Below, one piece after another: positions 54,235-58,185 of a DNA stretch of 64,000 nucleotides. The stretch spans positions 448,437 through 512,436 of the forward strand of contig LLKB01000001.1 of the NCBI GenBank assembly GCA_001414325.1, in the 5' to 3' direction. The position numbers and the translations under genes are program-made. Each line of letters begins with the position of its first letter. Position 1 is the stretch's first letter. Below the pieces are notes generated by a model, which saw only the letters and a program-made list of their open reading frames with translations, did no database searches and was not told the origin of the DNA. The stretch comes from Butyribacter intestini (GTDB lineage Bacteria; Bacillota; Clostridia; Lachnospirales; Lachnospiraceae).

Positions 54235-55062
54235 ATGTCAGTAAATTACGCAAGCAAATATGCATCAGCGGTGGATGAAAGATTTAGCACAGGTTCGCTC
54301 ACAAATGGACTTGTAAACAGTGAATATGACTGGATCGGAGTTTCAACAGTTAATGTATATTCTATTCCAACATCAGCGATGAATGACTATTCAATGTCTG
54401 GTACAAGCCGTTATGGAACACCAGAAGAACTTGGCAATGAAGCACAGGAAATGACAGTTGCGCAGGACAGGTCATTTACATTTACGATTGACCGCAAGAA
54501 TTATGATGACACAATGATGACTATGGAAGCAGGTAAGGCATTGAGCCGCCAGTTAAATGAAGTTATCATTCCGGAGATTGATACTTATCGTATTGCAGCA
54601 TTAGTTTCAGGTGCACCTGTAGGAAATGTAAAAACTCTTGCAACAACAAAGGCTAATGCATATGAGGAGTTCTTAGCGGTACAGGAAATTCTTGACGATA
54701 ACGAGGCACCGCAGGTGGGCAGAGTAGTATTATGCACACCGGCATTTCACAATAAGATTAAGCTTGATGAGGCTTTCACAAAGAGGGGCGATATGGCTAC
54801 ACAGATTGCCATTAACGGTGTTGTTGGAGAAATTGATGGTGTTCCATGTATTAAGGCACCAACAAAGAGATTTCCTAAAAATGTAGATTTTATCATTACA
54901 AATGCTATTGTAATGCCATCACCTGTTAAGCTTCAGGAATATAAGATTCATACAGATGCACCGGGTATTTCAGGTTGGCTTGTAGAAGGTCGTGTTCGTT
55001 ATGATGCATTTGTCCTTAAGGAGAAAGCTAAGGCAATCGGTGTTCATAAGAGCGCAGAATAA
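54235..55062 (+). CDS. Major capsid protein
   Basis: 275 residues, lying directly after the scaffold gene with AGAGG before the ATG. The N-terminal arm (VNYASKYASAVDERFSTGSL) and TFTIDRKNYDDTMM are typical of clostridial HK97-fold capsids without a protease domain; the core continues with RVVLCTPAFHNKIKLDEAFT. No cleaved propeptide is apparent. A terminator-like hairpin follows, as often behind highly expressed capsid genes. Confidence 0.9.
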   Translation: MSVNYASKYASAVDERFSTGSLTNGLVNSEYDWIGVSTVNVYSIPTSAMNDYSMSGTSRYGTPEELGNEAQEMTVAQDRSFTFTIDRKNYDDTMMTMEAGKALSRQLNEVIIPEIDTYRIAALVSGAPVGNVKTLATTKANAYEEFLAVQEILDDNEAPQVGRVVLCTPAFHNKIKLDEAFTKRGDMATQIAINGVVGEIDGVPCIKAPTKRFPKNVDFIITNAIVMPSPVKLQEYKIHTDAPGISGWLVEGRVRYDAFVLKEKAKAIGVHKSAE

Positions 55063-55267: not shown

Positions 55268-55591
55268 ATGGCAGAGATAACATCAAAACATCGTATATTG
55301 TGTGGATTGGACAGTAACGATACATCAGAAGATGATGTGCTCTCTGTCTATCTGAAAAAAGCACAAAACAAAGTGGTTAAAGCACGATATCCATTTGGTT
55401 GTACAGATATTCAACGGGAAGAAACATTGGATTCATATTCAGAAAATGTAGATGGTTTGCTGGTGCATTATTATAACAAGATTGGTGCAGACAATGAAAC
55501 TGCTCATTCTGATAGCGGCACCAGCAGAACATACATGAAAGATAGTGACTTTCTTGATGATATTGTACCTGTTGCAGATGTTGTGTTATAG
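55268..55591 (+). CDS. Head-tail connector (gp6/gp15-like)
   Basis: 107-residue helical protein of the type that docks below the portal. EDDVLSVYLKKAQNKVVKAR and the conserved Tyr-Pro and DIQREE region fit connector proteins of HK97/SPP1-like phages. AGGAG precedes the ATG. Assigned by pattern and position after the capsid. Confidence 0.72.
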   Translation: MAEITSKHRILCGLDSNDTSEDDVLSVYLKKAQNKVVKARYPFGCTDIQREETLDSYSENVDGLLVHYYNKIGADNETAHSDSGTSRTYMKDSDFLDDIVPVADVVL

Positions 55592-55593
55592 GA

Positions 55594-55701
55594 ATTAAGT
55601 GGAACGCTTGGCGATTCCTTAGAATCTCTCCTTATGTCAAGCAGGGCGGTATCTATGTGGTGGCTGGGAGCGATACCAATTATGAGGAGAGAATGTTATG
55701 A
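55594..55701 (+). other. Protein-like open block without a normal start
   Basis: 35 codons in the frame +2 to the connector gene run to a TGA that overlaps the next ATG (ATGA). The sequence (KWNAWRFLRISPYVKQGGIY, then VVAGSDTNYEERML) looks like real protein, but only ATT or ATA could start it. It may be a small gene with a rare start, a frameshifted tail of the connector, or the remnant of a damaged gene. Confidence 0.35.
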
Positions 55702-56171
55702 GAGATTTAAAAAGAAATCAGCGAAAGATGTATTATTCGCTATATATTGAGCAGGAGAATGATTCGGATTTTGATGTGCTTGATACCGTTGCAAAATATT
55801 CAGCTCCGGTTGAATTTAAAGCAAGTTTGACAGCAGGCAAATCAGATTCCGATGATTCACCATTTGGTAAGGATATTTCATATGATAGGATTATTTCCAC
55901 AGTGAAAAAGGACTTACCGATTACGGAAACATCACTGATTTGGTATGAAACAGAACCTATATTATTGGAAGATGGTTCAGCAAATCCTGATAGTGCAGAT
56001 TACAAGGTTGCAGCGGCACCTTTAGATGGTCTTGATGGAATACGGATTGCAATTAAGAGTATTGCGAAGTCGAATGTTCCAAAGAATGATAAAAAAGATG
56101 ATGTTACAGAAGATAACGGAAATAAAGAAGATAATTCAGACAGTAGTGGTGATGATTTAGAGGATTGGTAA
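55698..56171 (+). CDS. Uncharacterised head-closure-region protein, 157 residues
   Basis: Position suggests a head-closure or connector component. The first 120 residues form a beta-rich domain (LKRNQRKMYYSLYIEQENDS; FKASLTAGKSDSDDSPFGKD), and the last 35 are a highly acidic, low-complexity tail. GAGGAGAG precedes the ATG. The stop overlaps the region before the DUF4406-Tad2 gene. Confidence 0.7.
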   Translation: MRDLKRNQRKMYYSLYIEQENDSDFDVLDTVAKYSAPVEFKASLTAGKSDSDDSPFGKDISYDRIISTVKKDLPITETSLIWYETEPILLEDGSANPDSADYKVAAAPLDGLDGIRIAIKSIAKSNVPKNDKKDDVTEDNGNKEDNSDSSGDDLEDW

Positions 56172-56185
56172 AGGAGAGATTGAAA

Positions 56186-56770
56186 ATGAAGAAGTTATTT
56201 ATTAGTCAGCCTATGAATGGAAAGACGGAAGAGGAAATTCTTGCAGTAAGGAAGAAAGCTATCGAAAGTGCAAAAGTTATGCTTAATGAAGATGTTGAAG
56301 TTATTGAATCATATTTTGAGGACTATAACCCAGACAAAGGGTGTGTACCTTTGAAGTACCTTGCAAAGTCATTGGAATTACTGGCTGATGCAGATGTGGC
56401 ATATTTTGCTAAAGGATGGGAGAGTGCAAGAGGTTGCCGTATTGAAAATCAGTGTGCTATTGAGTATGGCATTGATACGATAGAAGATTATACAAATGGT
56501 TCTTTGGAACAGGGATATAACTTCGGTACTGCTCTTGAAATTTTGAAACATGGTGGTAAGGTTGCCCGTGAGGGTTGGAATGGTAAGAAACAGTATATTC
56601 AGTTGGCAACAGGCATCTCTTATAAGTCAGCAGATGACGAGATTGTAAATTGTGAGCATGATGAAATCGGAAATAAGGCTATTGCTTTTGTCGGGACATC
56701 TGGTGTACAGATTGGATGGCTTGCATCACAGGCTGATATGCTTGCAGAGGATTGGGTTGTTGTAGAATAA
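56186..56770 (+). CDS. DUF4406 (deoxyribosyltransferase-like) fused to a DUF2829/Tad2-like anti-defence domain
   Basis: 194 residues. Residues 1-105 are DUF4406: KLFISQPMNGKTEEEI, then DADVAYFAKGWESARGCRIE with the Glu expected at the active site of nucleoside 2-deoxyribosyltransferase-like folds. Residues 110-194 match DUF2829, the Tad2 family: YNFGTALEILKHGGKVAREG, then WNGKKQYIQLATG and IGWLASQADMLAEDWVVVE. Tad2 proteins sequester the cyclic ADP-ribose-type signal made by Thoeris defence. ATG 56186 has AAAGGAGAG upstream. It sits as cargo among connector genes. The fold calls are by eye; joint function is inferred. Confidence 0.82.
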   Translation: MKKLFISQPMNGKTEEEILAVRKKAIESAKVMLNEDVEVIESYFEDYNPDKGCVPLKYLAKSLELLADADVAYFAKGWESARGCRIENQCAIEYGIDTIEDYTNGSLEQGYNFGTALEILKHGGKVAREGWNGKKQYIQLATGISYKSADDEIVNCEHDEIGNKAIAFVGTSGVQIGWLASQADMLAEDWVVVE

Positions 56771-56827: not shown

Positions 56828-57661
56828 ATGTATGTTTCAGAAATAAAAAGATGCTTTCAAAATAGTATATTAAATTTTTATGTATCAAATGGAATAAAAT
56901 GGAAATTTACTGATACATTAGATTTCCATTTGTTACTGATTGATTATTTTGAAATACTAAGAAAACACATTGTTCCAAGAAAAAGAAATATATATATTTC
57001 TAAAGAGTTGAAACAAAAAATTAATTCACCAGAGTATTCTGCATGGGAAACGAGATTTTATAAAATAAAAGAAAAATTCAAAAATGGAGAAGATATGAAC
57101 TCATTTTTAAGTAAAAAGGCGGATGAGAATGGATTTAAAGACAGACTATTAACATGTTGGAAAATGTATCATCTGCATTTTTTCCCAGAGAAAAAGAGAG
57201 GGGATATGTTACTTTTTGCTATTATTACAGATGATAATGTATATATGGTAGATATACTTCCTCATAGTAAGGAATATGTTTTCTCTACTTTTAATTTGTT
57301 GAATATTGCTCATTCTAATTGGAAAGAAATTTTTGAGCAATATAGGCTTAGAGGAGTGGTTGAAATGTCAGTTATAATCAAAGAAGATAAAGAAATAAAT
57401 GAGTTTCGAAGAGGTGGAATTTGCACAGCAATGCAATTAGGAAATGATATATATTCTTTAGATACGATGTCTTCAGATGGTCATAATGCAATGGATGTAA
57501 TGTATGCAAATCATATATGCAATAAATTACATGAGTATGAGCATAAAGGAATCTTTAAAAACTGTAAAATATATGATTTTTCTTTGACATATATAATGAA
57601 TCCATGTTTTGTTCTAACATATTATGATGCCAAAGGAAAGCTTGATGTTTGGAGTATTTAG
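56828..57661 (+). CDS. Orphan cargo protein of unknown function, 277 residues
   Basis: No family recognised. The product is soluble and very AT-rich in coding, unlike the neighbouring structural genes. Residues 105-160 carry the most motif-like stretch: RLLTCWKMYHLHFFPEKKRG then DMLLFAIITDDNVYMVDILP and HSKEY, a His/Arg-bearing strand pattern like that seen in some RelE-like or host-takeover proteins; this is only an impression. GAAAGGAGC precedes the ATG. It has its own promoter with a putative operator and interrupts the head-tail joining genes, the hallmark of a moron. Confidence 0.8.
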   Translation: MYVSEIKRCFQNSILNFYVSNGIKWKFTDTLDFHLLLIDYFEILRKHIVPRKRNIYISKELKQKINSPEYSAWETRFYKIKEKFKNGEDMNSFLSKKADENGFKDRLLTCWKMYHLHFFPEKKRGDMLLFAIITDDNVYMVDILPHSKEYVFSTFNLLNIAHSNWKEIFEQYRLRGVVEMSVIIKEDKEINEFRRGGICTAMQLGNDIYSLDTMSSDGHNAMDVMYANHICNKLHEYEHKGIFKNCKIYDFSLTYIMNPCFVLTYYDAKGKLDVWSI

Positions 57662-57678: not shown

Positions 57679-58185
57679 ATGCCAAAACAAATCAATTTCA
57701 CATATGACAGTCCATCAAGCATTGACAATGCCATTAAGGAAATGCGGTCATATCAAGCCAATATTACTTACAAATGCAAACTTCTAGCCGAACGCTTAGC
57801 GAATATCGGTGTGGAGATTGCAAGGGTGAATGTGGCTGATTTTGATGCAATCTACAGCGGGGAGCTATTGTCGAGTATTAAAGCTGAATATGATGGAATA
57901 ATTCCTGATGGAGCCTCATGGATGGTTATTACAGACTGTCCATGGGCTTTTTATGTTGAGTTCGGTACCGGAATTGTCGGTGCGAATAGTCCACACCCTG
58001 ATACAAGCATTGCTAATTGGAAATATGACATCAATCAGCATGGAGATATGGGTTGGTATTACTTCAAAGATGGAGATTGGCATTGGACAAAAGGTATGCC
58101 GAGCAGACCATTTATGTATCAGACAGGCATGGATTTGAGAGCAAGGATAGAAAGTGTTGCGAGGGAGGTGTTTGCAAGTGCTTAG
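57679..58185 (+). CDS. HK97 gp10-like head-tail joining protein
   Basis: 168 residues. The core AFYVEFGTGIVGANSPHP and MPSRPFMYQTGMDLRARIES match the HK97 gp10/minor structural family, which forms the adaptor between head and tail. GAGAGG lies about 13 bases before the ATG. The 3' end overlaps the next gene by 8 bases. Confidence 0.85.
   Translation: MPKQINFTYDSPSSIDNAIKEMRSYQANITYKCKLLAERLANIGVEIARVNVADFDAIYSGELLSSIKAEYDGIIPDGASWMVITDCPWAFYVEFGTGIVGANSPHPDTSIANWKYDINQHGDMGWYYFKDGDWHWTKGMPSRPFMYQTGMDLRARIESVAREVFASA

What the first reader, a model, noticed from the sequence alone, without database searches (positions are those of the whole stretch)
56186..56770. DUF4406 fused to a Tad2-like anti-Thoeris domain
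Sequence shows two joined modules: a nucleoside-deoxyribosyltransferase-like DUF4406 domain and a DUF2829/Tad2-like domain. Tad2 is known to bind the cyclic ADP-ribose-type Thoeris signal. An attached domain that may act on nucleotides suggests capture plus turnover or modification of the signal, a two-step anti-defence protein. The gene lies as cargo among connector genes.
Basis: partly seen in the sequence, partly recalled or inferred. Interest (0 to 1): 0.82.

Follow-up and report, generated by a model that had tools for sequence, protein, structure and literature searches.

The report
Phage immune-signal sponge fused to enzyme
A bacterial virus carries one protein that joins a domain related to known sponges for bacterial immune signals with a domain that looks like a sugar-base-bond-cutting enzyme, which suggests, without yet proving, that it could both trap and destroy the alarm molecule.

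Summary
Window 56186-56770 (+) is a 194-residue prophage gene: its C half is a Tad2-like domain (Pfam PF11195, E 1.3e-20; nearest PDB sequence ModTad2, E 2.9e-14), its N half is DUF4406 with a nucleoside-deoxyribosyltransferase (NDT) fold. A model (pLDDT 90) gives two confident domains with a loose linker. The N half keeps the NDT catalytic glutamate (E87, 30 of 30 relatives); the typical active-site tyrosine is Phe (F5), followed by Ser (S7), a pair once engineered into an NDT to raise activity on inosine. The fusion is rare (two phages found), but DUF4406 lies within 0.8 kb of a separate Tad2 gene in eight further loci, in either order. The N halves of the two fusions are not one clade. Against a necessary partnership: none of 27 DUF4406-only virus contigs holds Tad2. 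The next gene matches defence system PD-T4-7. Best reading: a late cargo protein that sequesters an ADP-ribose-type signal and probably hydrolyses it or a related nucleotide. Signal binding and catalysis are inferred, not shown. New variant of a known kind.

The parts
56186..56770 (+). DUF4406-Tad2 fusion gene, 194 aa
56173..56176 (+). GGAG ribosome-binding motif, nine bases before the ATG
   Evidence: read from sequence
56186..56485 (+). N half, residues 1-100: DUF4406 / NDT-fold domain
56198..56206 (+). F5-I6-S7, aligned with the NDT Tyr-x-Ala positions of the active site
56444..56446 (+). E87, aligned with the catalytic Glu of NDTs; E in 30 of 30 rows of A2
56486..56515 (+). linker, residues 101-110; 104-107 have pLDDT under 50
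56516..56767 (+). C half, residues 111-194: Tad2-like domain
56573..56587 (+). G130-K134 (GWNGK) loop; also present in ModTad2, AcrIIA7/HgmTad2 and SptTad2
56717..56755 (+). W178-W190 (WLASQADMLAEDW) motif; near-identical in AcrIIA7/HgmTad2 and SptTad2, W..S..D.LAEDW in ModTad2
54235..55062 (+). major head protein (context)
   Evidence: phrog_422 E 3.4e-64
55268..55591 (+). head-tail connector (context)
   Evidence: PF05135 E 1.9e-7
55698..56171 (+). gene directly upstream; no Pfam or PHROG match (context)
56828..57661 (+). gene directly downstream: PD-T4-7-like defence gene, 277 aa (context)
   Evidence: PADLOC PDLC04065 E 1.4e-35; no Pfam or PHROG match
57679..58185 (+). tail completion / Neck1 protein (context)
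   Evidence: phrog_5 E 5.5e-6

Best explanation
A prophage counter-defence protein, carried in the late head-tail region, with two parts on one chain. The Tad2 half most likely folds and assembles like known Tad2 sponges and sequesters an ADP-ribose-type immune signal made by TIR (Thoeris) defences. The DUF4406 half most likely is an NDT-type glycosidase with E87 as nucleophile; with F5 and S7 in place of the NDT Tyr-x-Ala it should tolerate a 2'-hydroxyl, so that ribosyl compounds such as histidine-ADPR are possible substrates. The chain would thus bind the signal, or keep it local, and turn it over. Shown here: both folds (by sequence, profile and predicted structure), the conserved catalytic glutamate, the repeated linkage of the two families. 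Inferred: signal binding, catalysis, late expression, that both halves act on the same molecule.
For: C half is Tad2 by Pfam, by phmmer against the PDB and by Foldseek, and shares GWNGK and the W..S..D..A.DW motif with solved Tad2s. N half is NDT-like by PHROG, by profile-profile (91% probability, E 1.1e-6, 90 columns, E87 on the NDT glutamate) and by Foldseek of the half alone (of the 50 rows listed, 21 are NDTs and 5 DNPH1/RCL, the first an NDT at 8.1e-4, the only one under 0.001). E87, R82, G83, C84, Y94 30 of 30, S7 29 of 29, F5 19 of 29 with Met 9 and Tyr 1. In an engineered NDT, Y7F-A9S raised kcat/KM for inosine 8-fold over wild type and S9 lies 2.5 A from the catalytic Glu (PMC12645435, passages). 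Linkage: 10 of 117 distinct Tad2 genes gathered here have DUF4406 fused (2) or on the same strand within 5 kb (8, seven of them within 400 bp); 3 of 8 Tad2-bearing genomes among 299 of the host's family. The N halves of the two fusions are not one clade (p-AU 0.0007). ThsB-like TIR domains in 76 of 299 genomes of the host's family.
Against: 0 of 27 DUF4406-only virus contigs, many of them fragments, contain a Tad2-like gene, so DUF4406 usually works without it. Two of 41 Tad2 contigs carry a DUF4406 match about 8 and 13 kb away, the latter below the family cut-off. The fusion is rare: 1 of 299 family genomes and 1 of 398 phylum genomes, both times the window's own. Tad2 domains are also joined to several other N-terminal stretches, so the domain is fusion-prone. 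By my reading the second NDT aspartate falls on E64, which is E in only 25 of 30 rows. Conservation counts are helped by the way the loci were fetched (peptide patterns from this protein). Neither ThsB_TIR, TIR_2 nor the ThsA STALD domain was found in the host genome (the STALD control was silent). I saw no binding or enzyme data for this protein.
Confidence: 0.42

Rival explanations
1. Two independent activities packed in one gene: a Tad2 sponge and a nucleotide-pool or other counter-defence glycosidase whose substrate has nothing to do with the Tad2 ligand. The fusion arose because both are short cargo genes inserted at the same sites.
For: DUF4406 mostly occurs without Tad2 in the contig (0 of 27). 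In the loci looked at, stand-alone DUF4406 genes lie in different places: near a scaffolding, an endolysin, an anti-repressor, a primase and a terminase gene (L009, L171, L175, L177, L184). Order of the two genes varies. The next gene is a third, unrelated cargo gene, PD-T4-7.
Against: Where both families were seen in one contig they are mostly fused or within 0.8 kb on the same strand, more than shared cargo sites would easily give; the linked DUF4406 genes are scattered over their tree (9 label changes).
Confidence: 0.33
2. The N half is not catalytic and serves as an oligomerising or ligand-holding scaffold for the Tad2 tetramer.
For: NDTs are themselves oligomers (recalled; a figure legend on CtNDT seen speaks of the tetramer). 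RyDEP homologues show that a family can switch between enzyme and sponge (PMC13232231, section 5).
Against: E87 and the RGC motif are invariant in 30 of 30 rows of A2, 28 of them not fused to Tad2.
Confidence: 0.12
3. The Tad2-like half is not a signal sponge in this subfamily; it has some role in the head or neck operon.
For: Tad2-like genes in these phages often lie in the head region: 35 of 117 have a gene of the Phage_min_cap2 cluster (named through one member, L052) within 5 kb, 23 of the 36 such genes within 400 bp. The middle segment (about residues 140-176) aligns poorly with the solved Tad2s.
Against: Best matches are sponges, several solved with ligands; the loop motifs are kept; only 21 of 299 family genomes match either half, and the gene is found at different sites, as cargo is.
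Confidence: 0.1
4. The N half mimics a TIR domain and disturbs ThsB assembly, as a decoy.
For: Foldseek of the whole model also lists a TIR domain (4c6t, E 1.7e-3) and a chain of the ThsB-Tad3 complex (9b7d_C).
Against: For the half alone NDTs rank first; the ThsB-Tad3 chain comes 34th; profile comparison with four ThsB-like TIRs gave nothing (0.5% probability).
Confidence: 0.03

Closest known systems
Tad2 family (PF11195; SPO1 Tad2, ModTad2, HgmTad2/AcrIIA7, SptTad2)
   Same: C half has the same fold and shared motifs; ModTad2, solved with histidine-ADPR, is the nearest PDB entry by sequence and by fold.
   Different: The seven Tad2/AcrIIA7 sequences found in the PDB are 88-158 residues long; here a 100-residue NDT-fold domain precedes it. 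The ligand is not known.
DUF4406 / nucleoside 2'-deoxyribosyltransferases, DNPH1 (PF14359, phrog_355)
   Same: Fold and catalytic glutamate near the start of a helix.
   Different: Phe-x-Ser at the place of the Tyr-x-Ala of CtNDT and of the first row of A4; RGC and W78 conserved in DUF4406; shorter (about 100 residues); fused to Tad2.
RyDEP (phage RyR-domain proteins, PMC13232231)
   Same: Phage proteins against ADPR-type Thoeris signals; one is a glycosidase, others act as sponges (abstract and section 5).
   Different: RyR-type domain and another catalytic pair (H75/D117). There one domain is either enzyme or sponge; here the two would be separate domains of one chain. No RyR match in 46 contigs (control silent).

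Membership tests
Tad2-like (PF11195) | sequence match above the curated cut-off | tested here: met
   74.1 bits against 25, residues 112-193
Tad2-like (PF11195) | Tad2 fold | tested here: met
   24 PDB chains at E up to 0.001, all Tad2/AcrIIA7
Tad2-like (PF11195) | conserved motifs in the loops said to line the pocket (GWNGK, W..S..D..A.DW) | tested here: met
   shared with solved Tad2s; in 25 rows of A3, but those rows were fetched partly by these motifs; the pocket loops are as given by a review (PMC12043709, passages), their match to these motifs is my inference
anti-Thoeris sponge | tetramer that binds gcADPR, hisADPR or cyclic dinucleotides and blocks Thoeris or CBASS | not testable with these tools
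   needs protein
DUF4406 (PF14359) | sequence match above the curated cut-off | tested here: inconclusive
   21.4 bits for the whole protein (cut-off 22), 23.5 for the half alone; 29 of 30 rows of A2 match at E up to 0.01
NDT superfamily | NDT fold and catalytic glutamate | tested here: met
NDT superfamily | active-site tyrosine beside the glutamate | tested here: not met
   F5 by alignment; so a typical deoxynucleoside-specific NDT is not claimed
NDT superfamily | glycosyl transfer or hydrolysis | not testable with these tools
   needs protein

The most novel reading that the evidence does not exclude
A single-chain 'capture and destroy' anti-Thoeris protein: the Tad2 half binds histidine-ADPR (type II Thoeris) and the DUF4406 half cuts its N-glycosidic bond through E87, which would make DUF4406 a second family of ADPR-signal glycosidases beside RyDEP, and stand-alone DUF4406 a widespread, unrecognised counter-defence family of phages.
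Probability: 0.2. Interest if true: 0.85.

Novelty: new variant of a known kind. Interest (0 to 1): 0.55.

Why it matters
A 2026 preprint (PMC13232231; [quoted passage not shown] A natural fusion of a sponge-type domain with an NDT-type glycosidase names a concrete candidate and a substrate class that can be tested with two small proteins. If the N half acts on ADPR signals, the many stand-alone phage DUF4406 genes gain a function.

Tried and rejected
A phage with the fusion in named collections: three of 216 phage records cover 80% or more of the query (60 of the 216 were listed). On reading, MT835516 has DUF4406 followed by a separate, unrelated gene and no Tad2 hit in the 9.8 kb fetched, and SJ46 (two records) has Tad2 behind a different N part (no DUF4406 hit). 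Rhizobium phage RHph_I1_18 and Pasteurella phage Pm86 have the Tad2 match behind other N parts, judged by eye. Of 44 plasmid records, 22 cover 80% or more; the one that I read (Klebsiella, L216) has no DUF4406 domain.

A link to RyR-domain proteins: 0 of 46 contigs, but the control was silent too, so absence is not shown. Profile comparison of the N half with four ThsB-type TIRs: nothing. PDB sequence search with the N profile: six matches, all judged chance, the best a snake toxin chain at E 0.0079. A first joint alignment put the N-only rows in the wrong place and was not used (A1; checked). For A4 I used 8 of the 12 NDT-like places (three of the 8 below Pfam's cut-off); the other four, L196, L199, L200 and L201, were dropped.

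A first neighbour count merged unrelated ORFs because of overlapping frames; it was redone with trimmed starts, same-strand genes only.

Literature: 'Tad2'+'Thoeris'+'DUF4406' 0 papers; 'Tad2'+'Thoeris'+'fused' 4 papers, titles and abstract starts seen, none by title about this; 'DUF4406' 3 papers, listing seen. Papers most likely to discuss Tad2 diversity (Hadary 2025, Tal 2026) and the Tad2 structure and hisADPR papers are not held, so prior mention of this fusion is not excluded.

Full report
Observation. The gene at 56186-56770 (+) codes for 194 residues and has a GGAG motif nine bases before its ATG. Pfam finds Tad2-like PF11195 at 112-193 (E 1.3e-20) and DUF4406 PF14359 at 3-96 (21.4 bits; cut-off 22; 23.5 bits for the half alone). 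PHROG 355, nucleoside 2-deoxyribosyltransferase, matches residues 1-113 at 5.6e-16. NCBIfam and PADLOC gave no match for the protein. In the PDB the C half finds ModTad2, AcrIIA7/HgmTad2, SptTad2 and SPO1 Tad2.

Structure. AlphaFold2 on alignment A3 (52 rows) gave mean pLDDT 90.2 and pTM 0.60, with values under 50 only at residues 104-107; the relative placement of the halves is therefore not known. Foldseek of the whole model: 24 PDB chains at E up to 0.001, all Tad2 or AcrIIA7, best ModTad2 with hisADPR (1.9e-6); below these come TIR (4c6t, 1.7e-3), NDT (9emx, 2.9e-3) and DNPH1 (8rpt, 8.9e-3), and also unrelated folds such as KaiC. The N half alone (pLDDT 93.8, pTM 0.84) gives a T. brucei NDT first (8.1e-4, the only match under 0.001). 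Of the 50 rows listed 21 are NDTs and 5 DNPH1/RCL; the rest include two structural-genomics proteins (7m5h, 1t1j, two chains each), quinone reductases and other flavodoxin-like proteins, EngA, two EcThsA chains (ranks 26, 27) and a chain of the ThsB-Tad3 complex (rank 34). VIA-align was not available.

Active site. A profile of 30 DUF4406 domains (A2) against eight NDT-like proteins (A4) aligns 90 columns with 91% probability; E87 falls on the glutamate that is invariant in A4, and F5 and S7 fall on the Tyr and Ala of the first row of A4. In A4 itself four of eight rows have that Tyr (read by eye). In A2: E87 30 of 30, S7 29 of 29, F5 19 of 29 with Met 9 and Tyr 1. One search pattern spans E87 (it begins with E-N), but 16 of the 30 rows do not have N88, so they were fetched by other patterns. 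PMC11204291 (section 11 read) says that NDTs and DNPH1 have a Tyr hydrogen-bonded to the catalytic Glu and are highly specific for 2'-deoxy substrates, while NAD-cutting TIRs usually have Phe or Ala there. PMC12645435 (passages) reports that Y7F-A9S in CtNDT improves kcat/KM for inosine 8-fold over wild type and that S9 lies 2.5 A from the catalytic Glu; it also reports that Y7 does not touch the 2'-OH itself. PMC10913048 (passages) gives E88 as nucleophile. So the N half looks like an NDT-type glycosidase open to ribosyl substrates. This is inference from alignment, not measured in the model.

Tad2 half. In the 25 Tad2 rows of A3, F113, R128, GWNGK 130-134 and W178-W190 are (nearly) invariant, but two of the search patterns lie in these motifs, so that this count is biased. 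The unbiased evidence is that the solved Tad2s share GWNGK and W..S..D..A.DW. A review places the Tad2 pocket in loops beta1-beta2, beta3-beta4, strand beta4, loop beta4-alpha3 and helix alpha3 (PMC12043709, passages). I saw no paper on the ligand of this subfamily.

How often the two families meet. The scan of viral contigs with the whole protein found 207 relatives, of which the best 80 were kept; two are fusions, L001 (the same phage, 100%) and L002 (68%). Genome contigs: 57 relatives, no further fusion. 299 genomes of the host's family: 21 with a match, one fusion (its own), and two with the two genes side by side (G232, G256) out of 8 genomes with a match to the Tad2 half. 398 genomes of the phylum: 8 with a match, no other fusion. 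Among 117 distinct Tad2 genes gathered here, eight have a separate DUF4406 gene on the same strand within 5 kb (L010, L013, L023, L025, L031, L108, L112, L147), seven of them within 400 bp and one at 775 bp, in both orders; in L108 the two genes lie three bases apart in the same frame. G232 and G256 carry the same DNA as L013 and L147 and were counted once. In reverse, 0 of 27 DUF4406-only virus contigs (all that searches gave) have a Tad2-like gene. Of 41 Tad2 contigs four have a DUF4406 match: L023 and L031 within 1 kb, two others about 8 and 13 kb away, the last below the cut-off (distances computed by hand). The 41 were chosen by hand from the 72 Tad2-bearing virus loci and included L023 and L031, known already, but not L001, L002, L010, L013 and L025. 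The sample is biased: loci were found with patterns from this very protein, 127 of the 207 viral relatives were not kept, and several contigs are short.

Trees. On the DUF4406 tree (49 rows) the label 'linked to Tad2' needs 9 changes (bootstrap 8-10), like shuffled labels (mean 9.4); starred branches force at least 3, but only 1 after three rows (L103, L106, L163) were dropped. Holding the N halves of the two fusions together is rejected (p-AU 0.0007; the pair was fixed by architecture before the first tree, but the test was run after seeing it); for the Tad2 halves a common clade is not rejected (p-AU 0.73, few columns, and the constrained tree was the better one). So either the fusion arose twice, or an old fusion exchanged its N half.

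Surroundings. In the window the fusion lies 1.1 kb after the major head gene (phrog_422); in L002 it lies 0.7 kb after a different major head gene (phrog_29) and before a tail terminator gene. The review says that ThsB1 recognises the phage major head protein, so expression of the sponge together with its trigger would make sense; that is a thought, not a result. The next gene, 56828-57661, matches PD-T4-7 (PADLOC E 1.4e-35), a system that the E. coli pangenome selection paper names (PMC9519451, search listing only; that it was first described there is recalled); the gene at the same place in L002 shows no similarity and no PADLOC match. The prophage also has an integrase, terminase subunits, an anti-repressor and head genes.

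Defence in hosts. ThsB_TIR (PF08937) occurs in 76 of 299 genomes of the family. In the host genome PF08937, TIR_2 and STALD gave nothing; the STALD control was silent, so that absence is weak. A prophage need not meet its target defence in its present host.

Verdict. The two-domain protein is real and unusual; the sponge half is likely functional, the enzyme half probably catalytic, and the joint action on one signal is an attractive but untested reading. I file it as a Tad2-like domain fused to an NDT-fold DUF4406 domain, not as a proven anti-Thoeris protein.

Noticed in passing
window 56828-57661 (+): The gene directly after the fusion matches anti-phage defence system PD-T4-7 (PADLOC PDLC04065, E 1.4e-35): a defence gene beside a likely counter-defence gene, both as prophage cargo.
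   Followed up: partly
Tad2 loci, e.g. L118 1801-2067: A gene of a cluster whose member in L118 is DUF6275 (PF19791) lies within 5 kb of 21 of 117 distinct Tad2 genes; 19 of the 21 genes are within 400 bp. A possible functional partner of Tad2.
   Followed up: no
L013 7770-8264, L023 7770-8264 and others: Many Tad2-like proteins of these phages have a second, diverged Tad2-like stretch in front (about residues 1-60), a tandem arrangement; Pfam sees only the second copy in L013.
   Followed up: partly
L108 4528-5079: Separate DUF4406 and Tad2 genes, three bases apart and in the same frame, in an Oscillospiraceae MAG contig.
   Followed up: partly
L068 7815-8267, L047 7794-8258, L057 3243-3890: Tad2-like domain behind another recurring N-terminal module (KKFVGTK...PMTR...YxDGYxSWSP), seen by eye, without a Pfam match in L068.
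   Followed up: no
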